From Amanita rubescens (taxonomy: Eukaryota; Basidiomycota; Agaricomycetes; Agaricales; Amanitaceae): a DNA stretch of 64,000 nucleotides. Positions 54,349 to 63,200 of the stretch are shown here, in pieces. How positions within the stretch are numbered: the first letter of the stretch is position 1; every line of letters starts with the position of its first letter. The translations under genes and the position numbers were made by a program. The notes beneath the pieces were generated by a model, which saw nothing but the letters and a program-made list of their open reading frames with translations, was not told where the DNA came from and searched no databases. The stretch lies in assembly GCA_015039365.1 (NCBI GenBank), contig WION01000021.1, forward strand, positions 310,001 to 374,000, given 5' to 3'.

Positions 54349-57300
54349 ATGTCAGACAGTGAAGTTGAATTCCCACCAAGTATGTCAAAATTTGCGCCTT
54401 GGCATTGTTGAACTTTTTCACTGACGTTATCAAATACGTTATACAGACGAGGAACAGGTTGCATTGCTCAGGGAGCGATACAGGTGTCCTCACTTCCGTA
54501 TCCTTGTCATTGGAAGGGCCAATGCAGGCAAAACGACTATTCTTGAGAAGGTTTGTCGTGTGGCAAGGGGAACAATCCCCATCATATATGACAAGGAGGG
54601 TTAGTCAAACCAGATTTCTCGCACTGTTTAATATTGAGCATCTATCAGGCAAACCACTGCAACCTACTTTGACACATTTAATACCATCAATTGAAGTGAG
54701 TTGAATGGTGCATATTGGCATATAAGTGTGCTTGTTCACATCTCACAATGTTAGAGAGGCATACATGATATTGAGCACCAGATTACATACAAAGGCAGCA
54801 ACTTCATCTTTCATGACTCTCAGGGCTTTGAATCTGGTGCAACTGATGAGTTGAATGTTGCTTGGGGATTCATTGACAAGAAATCTGCTGAATCAGAGCT
54901 GAGAAACCAGTTGCATGCAATCTGGTATCTTGGGTTATTATTATTATCTTTTATAACCAGCTCACCAAATATCTCATAGGTACTGTATCCCCATGGACAG
55001 TCCTCGTCCACTTCTGCATACAGAACTCCAGTTCTTTCAAAAAGGAACAGGAAAAGGTTAGTGTTGAAGCTATTTTCTAGTGTATTGATATTTGGTTGGC
55101 ATTGCAAGTTACTGCTTCACCTTTTTTACTGCTCTGCTGTGCATTAATCACACATACATATTAACCAAATACTGACATCTTCACAGTTCCTTTGGTGGTA
55201 GTATTTACCAAATTTGATGGTCAAATAGTCAATGAGTATGTCAACATGAAGGATGCAGAGAATTATGAAGATAAGTGGGACTTAGCAAGGGTGAAAGCTG
55301 ATGACAGTTTTCAGAGGATTTATCTTCCCAAAGTCTTGGATACTGAATATCCTCCCAAAGCATTTGTGCGATTGGCAGGTGAAAATTGTTAACCTTTCTT
55401 GCTTAAACAAACTTAGACATGATGATTTTTCACAGATATGGATTTGGATGAGAATGACTGTCCTGAATTGACTGAGCAGACTGCTGGTGCACTTGATGAT
55501 GACATCATTCAACAGCTGTTCATCTCAACACAGATGAATAACCTTGATCTTTGTGTCAAAACTGCCCTTCAGTGAGGACTGTACTTCTATATAATGCTGC
55601 TGCAAATGCTGACTGTTCTTAGACATACCCTGTCTTCTGCATGTCGATATGACACATGGATAAAGCAGACTCCTAGAATTCTCAACAAGTTTCCACATTA
55701 CTGGGTACAATGATATTTTCTAAAAGTTTTGACATGGATGTGGAAAACTAAACCGAGGATGCAATAGATTGACAGAGAAGTATGTCTCTTTCATATTAGA
55801 AGGGAACTAAAAATGATAAATGTAATAGGATGTGAGCACACAAACATACTTTGATGCTCAAGTTCTTTAACCATTGCCCTGATGAGCAGGCTGTAAGTAA
55901 CACATAATACATTGATTATTTTGCTGAGCCATGGTCCTATTTTAACAGCAAGATGAAATAAATGTGAGCAACATAAACATTCTGTGGTACATGCATTAAT
56001 ATCTTGCATATGTATTAGTGGGTAAATGATGTCAAAGTGGTTGCAACTTCACTAGATCTGATTTTGTAACCAACAGTTTGTGCGTGATGCATCATTTTAC
56101 TGCTGGGTTATCTGATCCTAGTCTTACTTAACAGGAAGTAAGTGACATTAATCACATTCCTGACAGCATCCTCATCATATTTATTATATGGCCAATAGGA
56201 GGCGAGTAGTGCTTCCCTATGGGTAAATTCAAACTCATCTTTTGAACCATACATATATACAGGCAGTGAGTAGTACTGCACTATTTTATGCCCCACAGTT
56301 TCACTTCATCTGAAACTAGAAAGTGAGTAACACACATTTCCACCAGCCTCATCACCTATCATATGGCCAACAGCAAGTCTGTAACCTAGTGCTTTGTTCC
56401 ATTAGAAGAGCTCATTAAATGTTGCCCATGATGAACAGGATGTGGGTGACATTCAAGTTGTCATTCTTTCTGTCTGTACATCTAATTCTATGATAATAGG
56501 CAGTAAGTGGCATAACCCATCACTTGTCCTTGATGACCATATTACATGTCATCCCATGAATAGGATGTTAGTGGTATTTATTTTGTCCCAGTTAGAGATC
56601 TTATGGTCAAAAGGATGTAAGTAGCACTGCACTTCTTGCATCAGAAAGACTTGGTCATGGATTATTGCATGACTTGCAGGAAGTGAGTAACATGTTATAT
56701 TGTCAATTCATCTGCAGGAAGCTGATTTGCTCCCAATTTCCTGTAGAGAGTAGGCAGTTCTACAAAATCTTTTTCTAGAGTATTTGATACTAACATCACC
56801 TACAGGATGTGAGTAGCACTCTTGCATAAAGTAAAGTTTGATCACACCCACCCATGACCAATGGCAGTTTGTGAGAATTCTGCAATTTTGTTCTAGGTAT
56901 TCTGATCACCCCTCTTCCTGTGTCTCCAGTTTGTTAGTCCCATAGTATTATTCCCTGACAGTCTCAGCAAGTTAACACTTTATTTCAAATAGGCAGTGAG
57001 TGGAGCTACATCATATATTCCCATGCACCAGATATTAAATGCCATTGTAGGAAGTGAGTAATATGCACATTGCATATCATCAAGATCTAACCTATTGTCA
57101 ACAGGGGGTGAGGGATTTCTTGTTTTGTTTGCTAACCAATGCTAATTTATTGTGGTCAACACTGAACAGACAGTGAGTGACACTCCTTCTCCTCCAATAT
57201 ACATAATCTGATTGCATATGACACATGATCGACAGCATGTGAGTGACAACAGTGGCTTGTCTGTTGCAAATGAATTGATATCATATCCTATTCACAGTGG

Positions 57301-59935
57301 GTGAGTAACAATAATCTTTTATTTTACAGCTATGTCATAGTCACAATTTCACAGCATGTAAGTTATGACCATTTATTTCGGTCATGCTCATCCATGATCA
57401 ATAGAATGTGAGAAATACTGCAAGTTTTCTTGTAAATCCTCTGATCCATATCATGTGCAACAGATTGTAAGTGATACTTCAACTCATCATGAAACTTCAT
57501 GGCTCACTATACACAGTCAGTGAGTGAAGCTACAAATTATACAAGCTAGCCAGGCTGCACATCATTTTCATGACAAACAGAATGTAAGCTTTTATCCCAT
57601 TTATTCTCTGAGGTTGGCTCATCATCTCAATCTACTTACCTAACAGAATGTGAGCATACATGCTTTTTAGTGACAGTTCCACCTTATCCTGTGATAAATA
57701 GATAGTGTGTGACATTGCTTAGTCTTGTTAAGCAGTCCATCTGATTATCACATGGGCAACAGAAAGTAATGACATTATCTCAGGCTTTCCTGCTAAGCAG
57801 ATTAATCTCATCATGAGCAGTTTGTAGGTAACAATACTTTTTGACCCAGGCAATTTCATCCCCATTAAACAGGATGTGAGTTTTAACTGCCTTATTTTTT
57901 GAAAAATCCTTATCACAACAAACAGAAATATGAAGTGAGTTAAAACCAGGAATACTTTTGCTGTCTCATCACACAATCAATAGAATGTAAGTAAACAGTT
58001 CCAAATTTTGCCCACATACTTCTTACATTCAACCATTGACCCATAGGATGTAAGTGACACTGGGTATTCTGCTGCCAGAAAGTCTTAATGGATATCTTAT
58101 GACTTATAGCCTGTAAGTGACATTCTACTCCTCCAGGAGCTCTCATTATATCATATAATGATGCCAACAGGGAGTGAGCATTATTTTCTGCTTCTTGAGC
58201 CTATTATGTATAATAAATCACATACACAACAGTTTGTAAGTGATTTCTCTTGCAGGGTGATTTTTTCACATCTCTTCCACTATTGAACAGAGAGTGAGAG
58301 CACTGTACATTTTTCCTGGAAGTAAATCTCATGTATCTGGTCATACAACTGACAGGGAGTTAGTAATGTTTCATGATTTTTCAAAGGGAGACTTATCAAA
58401 GTCATATCTATCTATTTATCTATCAATAGGGAGTAAGTTGACATGTTTTCCTGAGAAGGCTGCAATCTCATCACAAATCTTCTTACAAACAACAGGGGGT
58501 GGGTGACATACTATTTGTGTTTATTAAATAAGTTTCATCCATTTTGGCTTATGACCATCAGTCAGTGAGTGATATTATGCTTTAATCTATGGTGACATAT
58601 TAATTACATCTCATGTCTTAAAATGTCAGAATGTGAGTGACAGAAATGCAAGCTGAAGCAGAATTTTCATTGTATGACCATCAGGAAGTGAGTGTCACTT
58701 GATTTTTGGTAGTGACATTATTTCTCATGTGTGCAATATTAATAAATAGGATGTGAGTAACATTGTAACAGTTTTCTCAAGCTATTTTCACAACTCATAC
58801 CTTGGTCAAAGCAAGTGAGTTATGTTTGCCCTTATGTCTGTTGCTTGTCTAATGGTGGACAGTTTGTGAGTAAGAGCACACAATTTAAGCTGATTGATTT
58901 TATTCCATGACCAACAGTTTGTGAGTGGCTCACATGATATTGCTGGGGAGATTTTGTCTCATGACCAACAGTTTGTGAGTAACCCTACACATGTTCTACT
59001 AGGTAACTTATGCAATCTTGCACAATGAACAGGGAGTGAGTTACATTGTGAATTGATGTCTGCTTTGGCAACTCTCATCAACTGTCATCTCATGATGAAT
59101 AGGAAGTAAGTGATTATGTGCACTTTCCTGTCTGAGAGTTGTCTGATTTAAGGACCAACAGCAAGTAAGTGACATAAAACATTTCTTCTTAGTCTCATTT
59201 CATTTCATCTGATGAACAACAGAGAGTCAGTAAATTTGCACTCTTATCAGTATAAAATCCTATCAGAACTCATCCCATGAACAGGATGTGAGCAAGACCC
59301 CTTTCTCTGATTAATGCATCCTTCTTATGTAAATTTAACAGAAAGTGAGACCATCAGCTTTGTACTAGTATTTTATACTGCTGATATTATCATAAATAGA
59401 TTGTAAGAAATGATGCCTTTGCAATATTCCTTTCTGATGGCTTTCCCTATTACTTACCTCTCTAGGTAAGTATTGGCAGTTCAAGGTATAGAAAATTTCA
59501 TGCTAATTTGTATGCAGTTTGTATGTTTGATGTACATGGGATATTTTGCTCTTGCTCATGGATAGTCTGTATTTTTCTCCATGTTTGGAGGGAAAAAAAC
59601 AACAAAATTTTCACCAAAGGTAAGAGGTGCTTATGTCTGTGGAGTACAAATGATAGTAACATAGACAGCCTTCAACCTGCCAAATCATAGTTGGTAATAT
59701 AACTGATTCAATTTATATTTTCTTTGGTTAACTCTATGCAGCAATGATTATCATTTGCAAGCTGTCATTCTGGATAAATAAGCCATTCAAATATTCAATC
59801 ATTGAGGCTTTAGACCAATTCAAGAGCCAAGGATATGAGAAGAAGCTGAAGACTAGCATTACTTCCCTGTCCCTGCCCAAAGATGGTGATGAATTGCTTA
59901 AATTCCTGTATGATCTGATTAAGGACAAGTTCTGA
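54349..59935 (+). CDS. P-loop GTPase gene with a chain of about 60 ultra-short exons
   Basis: Ordinary exons: 54349-54379, 54447-54600, 54650-54696, 54755-54924, 54980-55056, 55187-55378, 55436-55571, 55623-55704, 55768-55779; then 60 tiny modules (55829-59402); a few small ones at 59480-59693; final exon 59742-59935. G domain: HFRILVIGRANAGKTTI (G1), FIFHDSQGFESG (G3), VVVFTKFDG (G4), as in a mushroom-expanded GTPase family. The final exon (FWINKPFKYSIIEALDQFK to DLIKDKF) matches the expected family C-terminus, so the tiny modules lie within one gene. An extra T at about 54540-54543, just after the Walker A exon sequence, shifts the frame. The phase into the final exon is unresolved. The gene might be expressed through many microexons, spliced by skipping the chain, or be decaying. 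Confidence 0.6.
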
Positions 59936-60708: not shown

Positions 60709-63200
60709 TCAGAACATGCCCCGCGCGAGCTGGTTAAGCTGCGCCGCCTGGTCGGGATAATTTTTCTGGAATTCGATCTGTGCTTCTGTAGCCTGTGAAT
60801 CGACTCCAATCAATAATCGTTCATGACTCAAGTGCAAGGCAATCACTCACGTATTTATATGTTAGGGCGTTGTTCAGCTCCGGTTCGTTCCTCGCTAGTT
60901 GGACTTGCTTTTCGAACATCTCGGCTGCTTTGTCAATTTTGCCTTGTTGTAGGTTAAGCTGCGCCAGGGTCGCTATCGCCGCTTCGCACTCGGGGTCAAT
61001 GCGGAGGGCTTCGTTGCAACACCGTTCGGCAGCTCCAGCATCTTGTTTCCATTGGAATAGTGTAAGACCCTTGTTTACGAGCGGGAGAACGTTCGCAAGG
61101 CGTCTAGCATGAACCTGTCAGAACCAGGACGCAGAACATTGGAAACACTCACTTGTCCTTTTCCAACTCGAACGACTTGTCAAACTTTTCCGCCGCTTCC
61201 TCGAACCTTTGTTGGTCCAACAAAAGCTCTCCGCTACGCCCCGTCATCAGATTCAACACAAGGTCCGAAAAGAAGATACACTTACTAATAGTTGTATGGC
61301 TCGCTCCTCTGCGGGAACGCTTTCAACGTTTTCCTAAACGTAGCCATGCCATTTGCCAAGCTACCCGACTTGTACTGTGCAACGGCCAACTGGATATGGC
61401 TAAACACGAATTTGTCATCCAACTCCGTCGAACGGGTGTAGTTCTCCGCCGCTTCGTTAAACTCGTTCATGATAAATAGCACTAGCGCAGGTCAACGGCT
61501 GGAATCACACGTAGAGTGCACACTCGTACCTTGTCCTCGGTGATAGAAGGCATCAGGGTCGTTCGGGTTTTGGCTGATCGCATCGTCAAAGCATTGGAAC
61601 GCTTTTTTAGGATCGCCTTGTTCCATGTATACACTGGCCAGCTTGACGAGACTTTGAGTAAATTCCGGAGCAACTGCGATGGACGCAACGAAGTCGTCTT
61701 TGGCCCCATCGACGTCGCCAGTCAAGAACCTAGTCAAAAATCAGGCATAAAATTCGTAAGAGTGCACTTTGGCAACGTACTTGAACGTTCCACGAAGGTT
61801 GAGTGCCTCAGCCTTTCCTGCAGGCCATGAAATCCCCTGCTCCAGCGACTCGTTGATATACGTCAAAGCATGGGGGTAGTCCGGAGCATCGAGCGCCTCC
61901 AGCGCCAGTTTTAGGGTCTGGTCGCCTTGCGACGGATTTTCGGGCAGTGTAGGGTGTGATCCTGCTCGAAAGAAAACATGTGGTTAACAATGGTTAGCGT
62001 TCGCAACACGCCAGGCTTACGGAGACGGAATGCAGCAAAGTAGGCTTGAATAAAGTTGAACGATGGTAATCGAGGTTCCCGAGTCTGCCGGCCATGCAGA
62101 GCAGCGTCAGCTACCAGCTTTAAAAAAGAAACGCAGAACAGAAACGCACTGCCATAAGCTCGGCACTTTTTTTCGTCGCCAGTTTTTTCAATACGCGTTC
62201 TACAGATTGGGCAGTATTTTGGTTTTGGAACTTGTCCAAGATGGTTGCGGCGGTAAAATCTGCAGTGGTGTTAAGTGAGGAAGGAAAAGAAGGGGGGGAT
62301 AGAATTGCATACCTCGCAGAGACTCTTCGTATCTCTCCAACCCTTCCAACGCCAGCGCGCGCCTATTCAATGCCTTGACGTACCCCGGTTCCAGTTTCAG
62401 CGCCTCATCGCAGTCATTGACCACAAGTTCGTGCTTAGGTGGGGACATGTTGATATAACCTGTAATTCGTCTTGTTAACTGTCTGTATTGTGACGGCGAA
62501 GAGCTTCACAAACTCACATGCTGCACGGTTCGAGTAAAATACCGAGTCAGCCTTAGGCGAGACCTGGATCGCTTGCGTATACAACTCTACAGCCCTTGCA
62601 AAGTCCTTGCCCGTGTACGCCGTGTTGCCTTTGGATTTGTACTCTGAAGCTTTTTTCGTCCGTTCCTACACCATACCCCGCATGTTTAACACATAACGAA
62701 AAGGTTGCAAGAATACAGGACCCTTACCTCAGTTGACATCCCGGCAATCTGAGCCTCTGACAACACTTCGACCTCACCCTCGCCTACAAAAACGAAGTAT
62801 CCAAGTCAGCATCGAACACCAGGCAGGACAAACTGCACATAAGACAAAACTCACCACTGGTGGATGCAGGCTTCACTTCCTCTAAAATCGGGCCGTCCTC
62901 ATCCTTCACCGTCTTCTTCTTCTTGCTCTTCCTCTTCTTTCCGTCACTCCCCGCTTCTCCAGCGGCACCCTCCCCCTTTTCCACATCCACACCTCTCTTC
63001 GTCCGCCTTCTCGAGCCACCTGCACCGGCAGACGAAGAAGCCACATGGTACTGGTAGGCCGCGACACCACCTACGGCCAAGAGAGCTGCAGCAGTACCAA
63101 TGAGAACCGCGCGTTTATTCTCAGCAACGAAGCCTTGAATTCTCTCGATAATCGACGTGCTCTCTTCTACGCCATAATTTGAGGCAGACTGCGAGGTCAT
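60709..63200 (-). CDS. TOM70: Mitochondrial import receptor TOM70, 622 aa
   Basis: Outer-membrane receptor that takes Hsp70/Hsp90-bound preproteins to the TOM complex. Twelve exons: 63200-62855, 62783-62728, 62665-62518, 62459-62313, 62259-62150, 62084-62021, 61964-61781, 61729-61530, 61481-61286, 61233-61153, 61103-60851, 60792-60709 (1869 nt, in phase). An N-terminal anchor ([20 protein letters not shown]) is followed by a basic linker, then the clamp TPRs ([32 protein letters not shown]) and the C-terminal TPR array ([39 protein letters not shown]). Length nearly equals yeast Tom70 (617 aa). The start at 63200 was chosen because it leaves a short polar leader before the anchor. Confidence 0.95.

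What the first reader, a model, noticed from the sequence alone, without database searches (positions are those of the whole stretch)
55829..59402. Chain of about 60 one-codon exons inside a GTPase gene
Sixty acceptor-NNN-donor modules follow one another every 50-74 nt (mean 60.5), with exact 3-nt cores in 58 and 9 or 15 nt in the other two. Ordinary GTPase exons flank the chain on both sides, and no core triplet is a stop. If spliced as it reads, about 3.6 kb would encode roughly 66 residues, one per exon, far beyond known microexon genes such as the schistosome MEGs. Exons this short should defeat normal exon definition, so intron definition or stepwise (recursive) splicing is implied. The chain could instead act as a splicing ratchet or timer, a source of isoforms, or the outcome of repeated intron gain.
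Basis: partly seen in the sequence, partly recalled or inferred. Interest (0 to 1): 0.97.

Follow-up and report, generated by a model that had tools for sequence, protein, structure and literature searches.

The report
Gene split at nearly every codon
In the mushroom Amanita rubescens a 3.6-kb stretch of a predicted GTPase gene reads as 60 tiny exons, 58 of them a single codon, and a public sequence only 1.1 kb long encodes the same 66-residue peptide but for one residue, so the fungus likely splices this part of the protein together one amino acid at a time.

Summary
Confirmed and strengthened. Window 55829-59402 holds 60 consecutive acceptor-core-donor modules (58 cores of 3 nt, one of 9, one of 15; 59 introns of 47-71 nt); shuffled sequence gives none. 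The chain was decoded before any homologue was seen. Its 66-residue peptide then matched P0002, encoded on a public contig of 1107 nt, at 65 of 66 residues. A full model (73 exons, 59 of exactly one codon, 457 aa) aligns with P0002 gap-free, 286 of 295. The contig has no room for the introns, so it is very likely spliced RNA. The genome is Amanita rubescens; the deposited gene model stops in the intron before the chain. Of seven further genes of this family sampled, six carry clear chains at the same place and one a weak one, with homologous peptides (WFE..AD..A..ER..). A rough extrapolation is 10^4 one-codon exons. The introns are one self-similar family. In five young arrays introns are 97-99% identical while codons differ at 43-66% of positions, and intron similarity does not predict codon identity (24 tests). 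Introns therefore appear to copy independently of the codons they separate. Splicing order, function and origin remain inferred.

The parts
54349..54379 (+). Exon 1 (31 nt), ATG start MSDSEVEFPP
   Evidence: Gene model; public protein P0001 agrees with the model at 296 of 297 residues
54447..54599 (+). Exon 2, P-loop GRANAGKT
   Evidence: 150 scored relatives of this exon in the genome, haplotype copies included
54649..54695 (+). Exon 3
54755..54924 (+). Exon 4, G3 motif DSQG
54980..55056 (+). Exon 5
55187..55378 (+). Exon 6, G4 motif TKFD
55436..55571 (+). Exon 7
55623..55704 (+). Exon 8, ends KFPHYW; the deposited model P0001 reads on into the next intron and stops (FPHYWVQ*)
55768..55779 (+). 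12-nt exon encoding IDRE, upstream of the chain
   Evidence: In the query; IDRE is in P0002
55829..59402 (+). Chain of 60 micro-exons separated by 59 introns, encoding DAQDEINWFEEAKQDADDERDFFAEGTHWHNISNNIKFDKYENDPGFRGGGSNEDQFFFGEQRDKI
   Evidence: First base of each 3-nt core: 55829 55890 56019 56077 56135 56199 56263 56320 56374 56439 56500 56564 56614 56680 56747 56806 56868 56930 56993 57051 57105 57170 57236 57298 57355 57405 57464 57517 57581 57647 57702 57763 57821 57873 57984 58047 58110 58171 58233 58291 58356 58430 58496 58562 58630 58685 58750 58812 58863 58918 58972 59033 59103 59162 59223 59285 59342 59400; longer cores 55949-55963 and 57926-57934. P0002 matches 65 of 66 residues.
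55949..55963 (+). 15-nt core, QDEIN
57926..57934 (+). 9-nt core, KYE
59518..59520 (+). A further one-codon exon (TTT, F) after the chain
   Evidence: Placed after seeing P0002
59566..59619 (+). Exon SVFFSMFGGKKTTKFSPK
   Evidence: Part of it (MFGGKKTTKFSPK) was in the query; extent set after seeing P0002
59669..59693 (+). 25-nt exon, PSTCQIIV plus one base
   Evidence: Placed after seeing P0002
59742..59935 (+). Last exon, C-terminal helical domain and stop
   Evidence: 150 scored relatives of the paralogous exon of L025 in the genome, this one among them

Best explanation
This is a predicted GTPase gene of Amanita rubescens whose 66-residue linker reads from the DNA as 60 consecutive micro-exons, 58 of one codon, and the spliceosome very likely removes the roughly 57-nt introns between them one by one to give a continuous mRNA. 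Shown here: the modules, the decoded peptide, its match to a public protein encoded on a 1.1-kb contig, homologous chains in paralogues, and a single self-similar family of introns. Inferred: (1) the contig is spliced RNA; (2) each short intron is recognised as a unit (intron definition), and neighbouring introns, only 3 nt apart, are removed in turn rather than together; (3) the introns multiplied and stay alike by copying from slot to slot (introner-like gain, gene conversion between introns, or both), leaving the codons in place; (4) because nearly every slot is a whole codon, gaining, losing or skipping a unit changes the peptide by one residue without shifting the frame, so the linker can vary freely. 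The linker is predicted to be a helix and loop, both of low confidence, and a confident second helix, between the GTPase domain and a C-terminal helical domain.
For: Decoded 66-aa peptide matches P0002 at 65/66; frames 1 and 2 score 25 and 5 against 369. The peptide was in the query sent, before P0002 was read. P0002 lies on a contig of 1107 nt, and P0003, P0004 and P0005 (461, 445, 478 aa) on contigs of 1506, 1492 and 1486 nt, leaving no room for introns. Full model 73 exons / 457 aa aligns gap-free with P0002, 286/295. L021's chain, decoded in two pieces, matches P0005 with one inner gap, 40 of 48 residues by my count of the alignment. Homologous chain peptides occur in paralogues. Of nine other public proteins inspected for the WF.. 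chain motif, six carry it: P0003-P0006, P0008, P0058. 4 stops in 742 triplets against 48.5 expected from positional composition; none in the window (the set includes near-duplicate arrays). Allelic arrays L060/L061: 3 of 41 codons differ and all parsed cores are 3 nt in both, while 18 introns differ by indels. Intron family: interiors of 57 chain introns score 2.58 against the 62-nt consensus (shuffled -3.31), 7 ordinary introns of the same gene -5.14 (shuffled -6.20). Genome-wide 3097+2703 strict module pairs against 0 for the reversed pattern.
Against: I could read only the protein and the contig length of P0002, not its nucleotides or sample type; at 97% identity it comes from another individual or close kin. 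Only this one contig covers this gene. Between alleles L060 and L061 codons are not clearly more constrained than introns per site (3 of 123 nt against 42 of 1293 nt in introns of equal length). Some young arrays contain 2- or 4-nt cores that would shift the frame (L064, L066), and L022 has a TAA core, so not every array is clearly functional. P0008 and P0058 carry the chain motif but end without the C-terminal domain, which may mean mis-splicing or another frame. No splicing intermediate, protein or phenotype was seen. Two searches with the chain part of P0005 found only P0005 itself.
Confidence: 0.9

Rival explanations
1. Tandem duplication: the array is a minisatellite whose 60-65-nt unit (intron plus its codon) was duplicated as a whole and then diverged.
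For: Exact 3-nt pitch and constant phase follow from one ancestral unit; the most similar introns lie closer together than average in all 12 arrays tested, slightly or strongly; adjacent identical codons are enriched at p < 0.05 in 2 of 14 arrays (L066 0.011, L025 0.02) with L064 at 0.054.
Against: In L062, 24 successive introns carry one substitution in all, yet the codons between them vary. Codon diversity is 0.43-0.66 against 0.008-0.028 in introns in five young arrays. The most similar introns share neither the upstream nor the downstream codon above chance: 0 of 24 tests at p < 0.05. In the youngest arrays many intron pairs tie, which weakens that test there.
Confidence: 0.25
2. Recursive or ratchet splicing: the cores are stepping stones that are removed, and the chain is really one long intron.
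For: Regular AG-NNN-GT junctions over 3.6 kb resemble a chain of recursive sites.
Against: P0002 keeps all 66 residues. Classical recursive sites are AG|GT with nothing between (recalled), whereas the spacing here is 3 nt. Stops are depleted in the cores.
Confidence: 0.03
3. Relic or non-coding repeat that is not expressed.
For: Some arrays have frame-breaking cores (L066, L064), L027 has only a weak chain, and L028 is an array fragment with no GTPase match in its 9 kb.
Against: A transcript-sized public contig encodes the chain of this gene, and another that of a relative of L021; all 59 chain introns have GT or GC donors and AG acceptors while their interiors have diverged.
Confidence: 0.03
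4. Adaptive diversity generator: arrays are kept because codon-sized exons in identical introns let recombination rewrite the linker in frame, serving non-self recognition.
For: P0003 and P0004 are near-identical outside the chain (279/292 and 84/89) but differ in chain sequence and length (37/61 aligned, 80 vs 63 aa). L063/L064 differ in clusters of codons inside identical introns. The family is very large. Podospora HNWD repeats diversify by repeat rearrangement (PMC2873952, abstract).
Against: No functional data; a free linker could also vary neutrally; frame-broken arrays exist; haplotypes of the window gene and of L023 have identical codons.
Confidence: 0.3

Closest known systems
Schistosome micro-exon genes (MEGs)
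   Same: Many symmetric very short exons, hard to annotate, coding a variable protein
   Different: MEGs: 10-20 exons of 6-81 bp (abstract: 3-81), mostly 15 bp, introns of 0.1-5 kb, 35 genes (PMC10526429, passages read). Here: 59 exons of exactly 3 nt in one gene, introns about 57 nt, a large GTPase family in a fungus.
Single tiny exons: 1-nt exon of Arabidopsis APC11 and of Fusarium CYP621A
   Same: Shows that a spliceosome can include exons of 1-3 nt
   Different: Reported as one such exon in the gene (PMC4674806, abstract and outline; PMC12940212, search listing only), not a run of about 60
Introner-like elements of fungi
   Same: Families of near-identical spliceosomal introns that multiply
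   Different: The abstract of PMC4457414 tells of genes with two gained ILEs each. Here copies are packed at almost every codon of one segment in one gene family; 7 of 8 sampled clusters lie in GTPase genes and one is an orphan fragment.
Stwintrons
   Same: Closely packed fungal spliceosomal introns
   Different: Stwintrons split a splice signal of an outer intron (PMC8469720, search listing). Here each intron has its own GT/GC and AG and whole codons lie between.
Podospora HNWD WD-repeat arrays
   Same: Repeat units under concerted evolution and rearrangement in a polymorphic fungal NTPase family
   Different: There the repeats are protein WD repeats of a STAND protein (PMC2873952, abstract and outline). 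Here the repeated part is intron and only one codon per unit is exonic.

Membership tests
Micro-exon gene (MEG type) | Run of very short exons in multiples of three | tested here: met
   58 of 60 cores are 3 nt, the others 9 and 15
Micro-exon gene (MEG type) | Long introns (0.1-5 kb) between them | tested here: not met
   Chain introns 47-71 nt
Micro-exon gene (MEG type) | Secreted protein with signal peptide | not tested
   No signal-peptide tool used
Introner-like elements | Many near-identical spliceosomal introns in one genome | tested here: met
   410 matches to a 62-nt intron; the listed 100% matches lie on 11 contigs, some of which may be haplotypes
Introner-like elements | Copies inserted in many unrelated genes | tested here: inconclusive
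   7 of 8 sampled clusters in GTPase genes, 1 orphan fragment; hit lists are truncated
Introner-like elements | Presence/absence polymorphism or a known insertion mechanism | not testable with these tools
Recursive splicing | Ratchet sites AG|GT with no retained nucleotides (recalled definition) | tested here: not met
   3-nt spacing; cores retained in P0002
Stwintron | An internal intron interrupts a splice element of an outer intron | tested here: not met
   All 59 chain introns have their own donor and acceptor with codons between
TRAFAC-class GTPase (MMR_HSR1-like) | G1, G3 and G4 motifs | tested here: met
   GRANAGKT, DSQG and TKFD in the predicted protein; motif assignment recalled
TRAFAC-class GTPase (MMR_HSR1-like) | Pfam MMR_HSR1 above its curated cut-off | tested here: inconclusive
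   Window protein 19.9 bits, its GTPase part 21.7, P0003 19.3, P0004 18.1, all below the cut-off of 21.9; not listed for P0005
Immunity-related GTPase (IRG) fold | IRG match well above other GTPases | tested here: inconclusive

The most novel reading that the evidence does not exclude
Amanita has evolved a codon-by-codon split gene family: on the order of ten thousand one-codon exons, in well over a hundred IRG-like GTPase genes, separated by a self-copying intron that homogenises without touching the codons. Because nearly every exon is exactly one codon and the introns are interchangeable, recombination, unit gain or loss, and even splicing errors stay in frame, so the spliceosome and the intron repeats together make a diversity generator for a hypervariable linker, plausibly used in non-self recognition.
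Probability: 0.3. Interest if true: 0.99.

Novelty: categorically new. Interest (0 to 1): 0.96.

Why it matters
If confirmed with RNA reads, it would be the most finely divided coding region I could find: tens of consecutive exons of one codon each. It would show that exon definition and a minimal exon size are not needed even for runs of dozens of exons, it would give a natural assay for intron-definition splicing and its order and fidelity, and it would catch introns multiplying at codon spacing in many paralogues. It also means that standard annotation truncates a large fungal gene family. Literature searched without finding such an array: (open-licence PMC only; no bioRxiv).

Tried and rejected
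Chance: rejected by shuffles. Assembly artefact: disfavoured, as the same chain is on a second contig (L059, 0 codon differences, 54 of 57 compared introns identical) and its peptide is in a public contig of other origin. Plain minisatellite duplication: disfavoured. Frame 1 of the young arrays is also open and reads as an acidic peptide; I judged this a side effect of core composition (third base A or T, few xTA cores), because frame 0 is the frame of the conserved ends and P0008 goes on in an R/G/Q/L-rich style like frame 0, but this is not proven for young arrays.

A slip and its repair: the pairing of introns with codons slipped by one after each break in arrays decoded in two or more pieces. 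One search repeats the test in register on 12 arrays; the one p < 0.05 (L025) vanished and none of 24 tests is below 0.05. Only one search is used.

Led nowhere: relatives in viral contigs (none); chain-only protein searches (only the query itself); L068 as an informative allele of L023 (99.86% identical, same 77 codons); PDB sequence search (five marginal matches: septin-11, Der, Arl2); one pdb_via look gave no decisive family. Locating P0003's gene in this genome failed: its best C-terminal match is 63% and its best N-terminal one 88% over 49 residues, so P0003 and P0004 are probably from another species, and I do not know their exon structure.

Counts to read with care: the estimate of about 11,900 one-codon exons scales 5800 strict pairs by 693 cores / 338 pairs in 15 arrays that were not chosen at random, and the assembly holds both haplotypes of some loci, as do the 150-row lists. 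The 742-triplet stop count includes near-duplicates (window/L059, L060/L061, L063/L064); of its 4 stops, 3 TGA are in L066, where they look like misparsed units, and 1 TAA is in L022. The diversity figures use only units with a 3-nt core and a 62-nt intron and leave out L066. The set of 7 ordinary introns is small and includes one of 130 nt.
Full report
OBSERVATION. Decoding gives 60 modules from 55829 to 59402, 58 with 3-nt cores, one of 9 and one of 15; 59 introns of 47-71 nt, mean 57.2; 198 coding nt without a stop in frame 0. Strict YAG-NNN-GTRAG occurs 42 times against a mean of 0.23 and a maximum of 2 in 500 dinucleotide shuffles. Without presetting the core length, the distance from GTRAGT to the nearest upstream YAG is 3 in 189 of 239 donors on the array strands of L021-L026 and in none of 22 on the opposite strands.

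THE GENOME IS FULL OF IT. The window lies in a 75.7-Mb eukaryotic assembly of 786 contigs. Two strict modules in succession occur 3097 + 2703 times, and 0 times for the reversed control pattern. Of eight clusters at the head of that hit list, seven lie in genes of the same GTPase family and one (L028) is an orphan fragment. In the seven genes (L021-L027) the array region follows an exon ending FPH(Y/F)W; in L027 the chain is weak, 7 + 7 modules with doubtful long cores. The P-loop exon has 150 scored copies (263 candidates) and the last exon of L025 has 150 (220 candidates), haplotypes included. The young arrays L062-L067 lie on contigs where both these exons, or for C239 the first of them, were found around the array. 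Scaling gives very roughly 10^4 one-codon exons.

THE CODONS ARE CODING. Peptides decoded from separate arrays are homologous in frame 0: WFEEAKQDADDERDFF (window), WFESADNAAAKERQYY (L021), WFEESGVMAKRERDFF (L022), WFERADRVAGRERSFY (L024), with endings such as RDKI, REI, RKI and LKI. Over 742 triplets there are 4 stops against 48.5 expected: three TGA in L066 and one TAA in L022. Two allelic arrays (L060, L061) differ in 3 of 41 codons, while 18 introns differ by indels; per site, though, the codons (3 of 123 nt) are not clearly more constrained than introns of equal length (42 of 1293 nt).

TRANSCRIPT-LEVEL EVIDENCE. I assembled the window protein from the DNA and used it as a query. Among the hits, P0002 is 295 aa on a contig of only 1107 nt. 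It contains DAQDEINWFEEAKQDADDERDFFAEGTHWHNISNNIKFDKYENDPGFRGGGSNEDQFYFGEQRDKI, the decoded peptide with one substitution (65/66; frames 1 and 2 score 25 and 5 against 369). The chain alone covers 3.6 kb of genome, so this contig is very likely assembled RNA from which all 59 introns were removed. With P0002 as guide the rest of the gene resolves: 73 exons, 1374 nt, 457 aa, 59 exons of exactly 3 nt, gap-free against P0002 at 286/295. After the chain, the exons at 59518 and 59669 and the extent of the one at 59566 were set with knowledge of P0002; everything before, and the last exon, was in the query. P0005 (478 aa, contig 1486 nt) matches the chain decoded from L021 with one inner gap. P0003 and P0004 (contigs of 1506 and 1492 nt) carry linkers of the same type, but their genomic DNA was not at hand. 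The deposited gene model P0001 stops at FPHYWVQ, a read-through into the next intron. Of the 120 listed hits I set 23 aside as JGI or ENA sequences; 34 of the other 97 reach FPHxW, and 33 of them end within 53 residues after it; P0049 (98 residues) goes on to the C-terminal domain without a linker, and P0022 includes the beginning of one.

THE INTRONS ARE ONE FAMILY. Young arrays consist of an almost invariant 62-nt intron at a 65-nt pitch. In L062, 24 successive introns carry one substitution while the neighbouring codons include CGA, CTT, CAA, GGA, GAA and TTC. Within five young arrays, per-site diversity is 0.43-0.66 in codons and 0.008-0.028 in introns. The interiors of the old, diverged introns of the window still resemble that consensus (mean score 2.58 against -3.31 when shuffled, n 57), whereas seven ordinary introns of the same gene hardly do (-5.14 against -6.20). 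The most similar introns do not share codons: 0 of 24 tests in 12 arrays at p < 0.05 (which replaces the misregistered). L063 and L064 are sister arrays in which private intron variants are shared, one variant sits in a different slot, two neighbouring introns changed together, and clusters of codons differ. I read this as introns copying from slot to slot without carrying codons, by insertion, gene conversion or both.

HOW IT WOULD WORK. Introns of about 57 nt are normal for this gene (its other introns are 45-67 nt, with two of 115 and 130), so each can be recognised as a unit. Two neighbours 3 nt apart can hardly be occupied by spliceosomes at once, so removal in turn is likely; once an intron is removed its codon joins the growing exon and the next donor sees a normal upstream exon. 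This is inference. A skipped or added 3-nt unit changes the protein by one residue and does not shift the frame, which may be why the architecture is tolerated. The AlphaFold model of P0005 (mean pLDDT 79.9) places the chain as a low-confidence helix and loop followed by a confident helix, between the GTPase domain and a helical C-terminal domain. IRG, EngB and septin GTPases are among the nearest solved folds, without a decisive winner. P0003 and P0004 are 94-96% identical outside the chain but share only 37 of 61 aligned chain residues, with lengths of 80 and 63, so the linker is a variable region.

AGAINST. Some young arrays hold 2- and 4-nt cores (L064, L066). P0008 and P0058 lack the C-terminal domain. 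I saw no nucleotides of the RNA-sized contigs, no intermediates and no phenotype. Expression of the very young arrays is not shown.

NOVELTY. Single exons of 1-3 nt and genes with 10-20 micro-exons are known, and so are multiplying introns. A coding region cut at essentially every codon by a repeat family of introns was not found in nine literature searches, which cover open-licence papers only. I rate it categorically new as a gene architecture; its parts (spliceosomal introns, micro-exons) are known kinds.

Noticed in passing
P0001 and 33 other genome-derived family models, among them A. brunnescens, A. polypyramis, A. muscaria and Mycena: 33 of 34 models that reach FPHxW end within 53 residues after it, several with a V (GT) right after a short xxRx exon, hinting that similar hard-to-annotate arrays may exist in other Agaricomycetes.
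   Followed up: partly
L066 (C13:581650-584950): A young array with cores of 2 and 4 nt, runs of CTA and CAA, and an adjacent 4+2 pair summing to 6 nt, as if one intron sat one base off.
   Followed up: partly
L028, around C1:764768: An array fragment with no GTPase match in 9 kb; an orphan piece or relic.
   Followed up: no
C650:4-65 and C88:4-65: Two contigs begin 3 nt before a perfect copy of the 62-nt intron, so assembly appears to break in the arrays.
   Followed up: no
window 61285-61740, - strand: Two open stretches with tetratricopeptide repeats, an ordinary neighbouring gene.
   Followed up: partly
P0003 and P0004: Two near-identical proteins, probably of another species, whose difference is concentrated in the chain segment.
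   Followed up: partly
young arrays L062-L067: Core composition differs from old arrays: CGA instead of AGA for R and hardly any AAx cores; unexplained.
   Followed up: no
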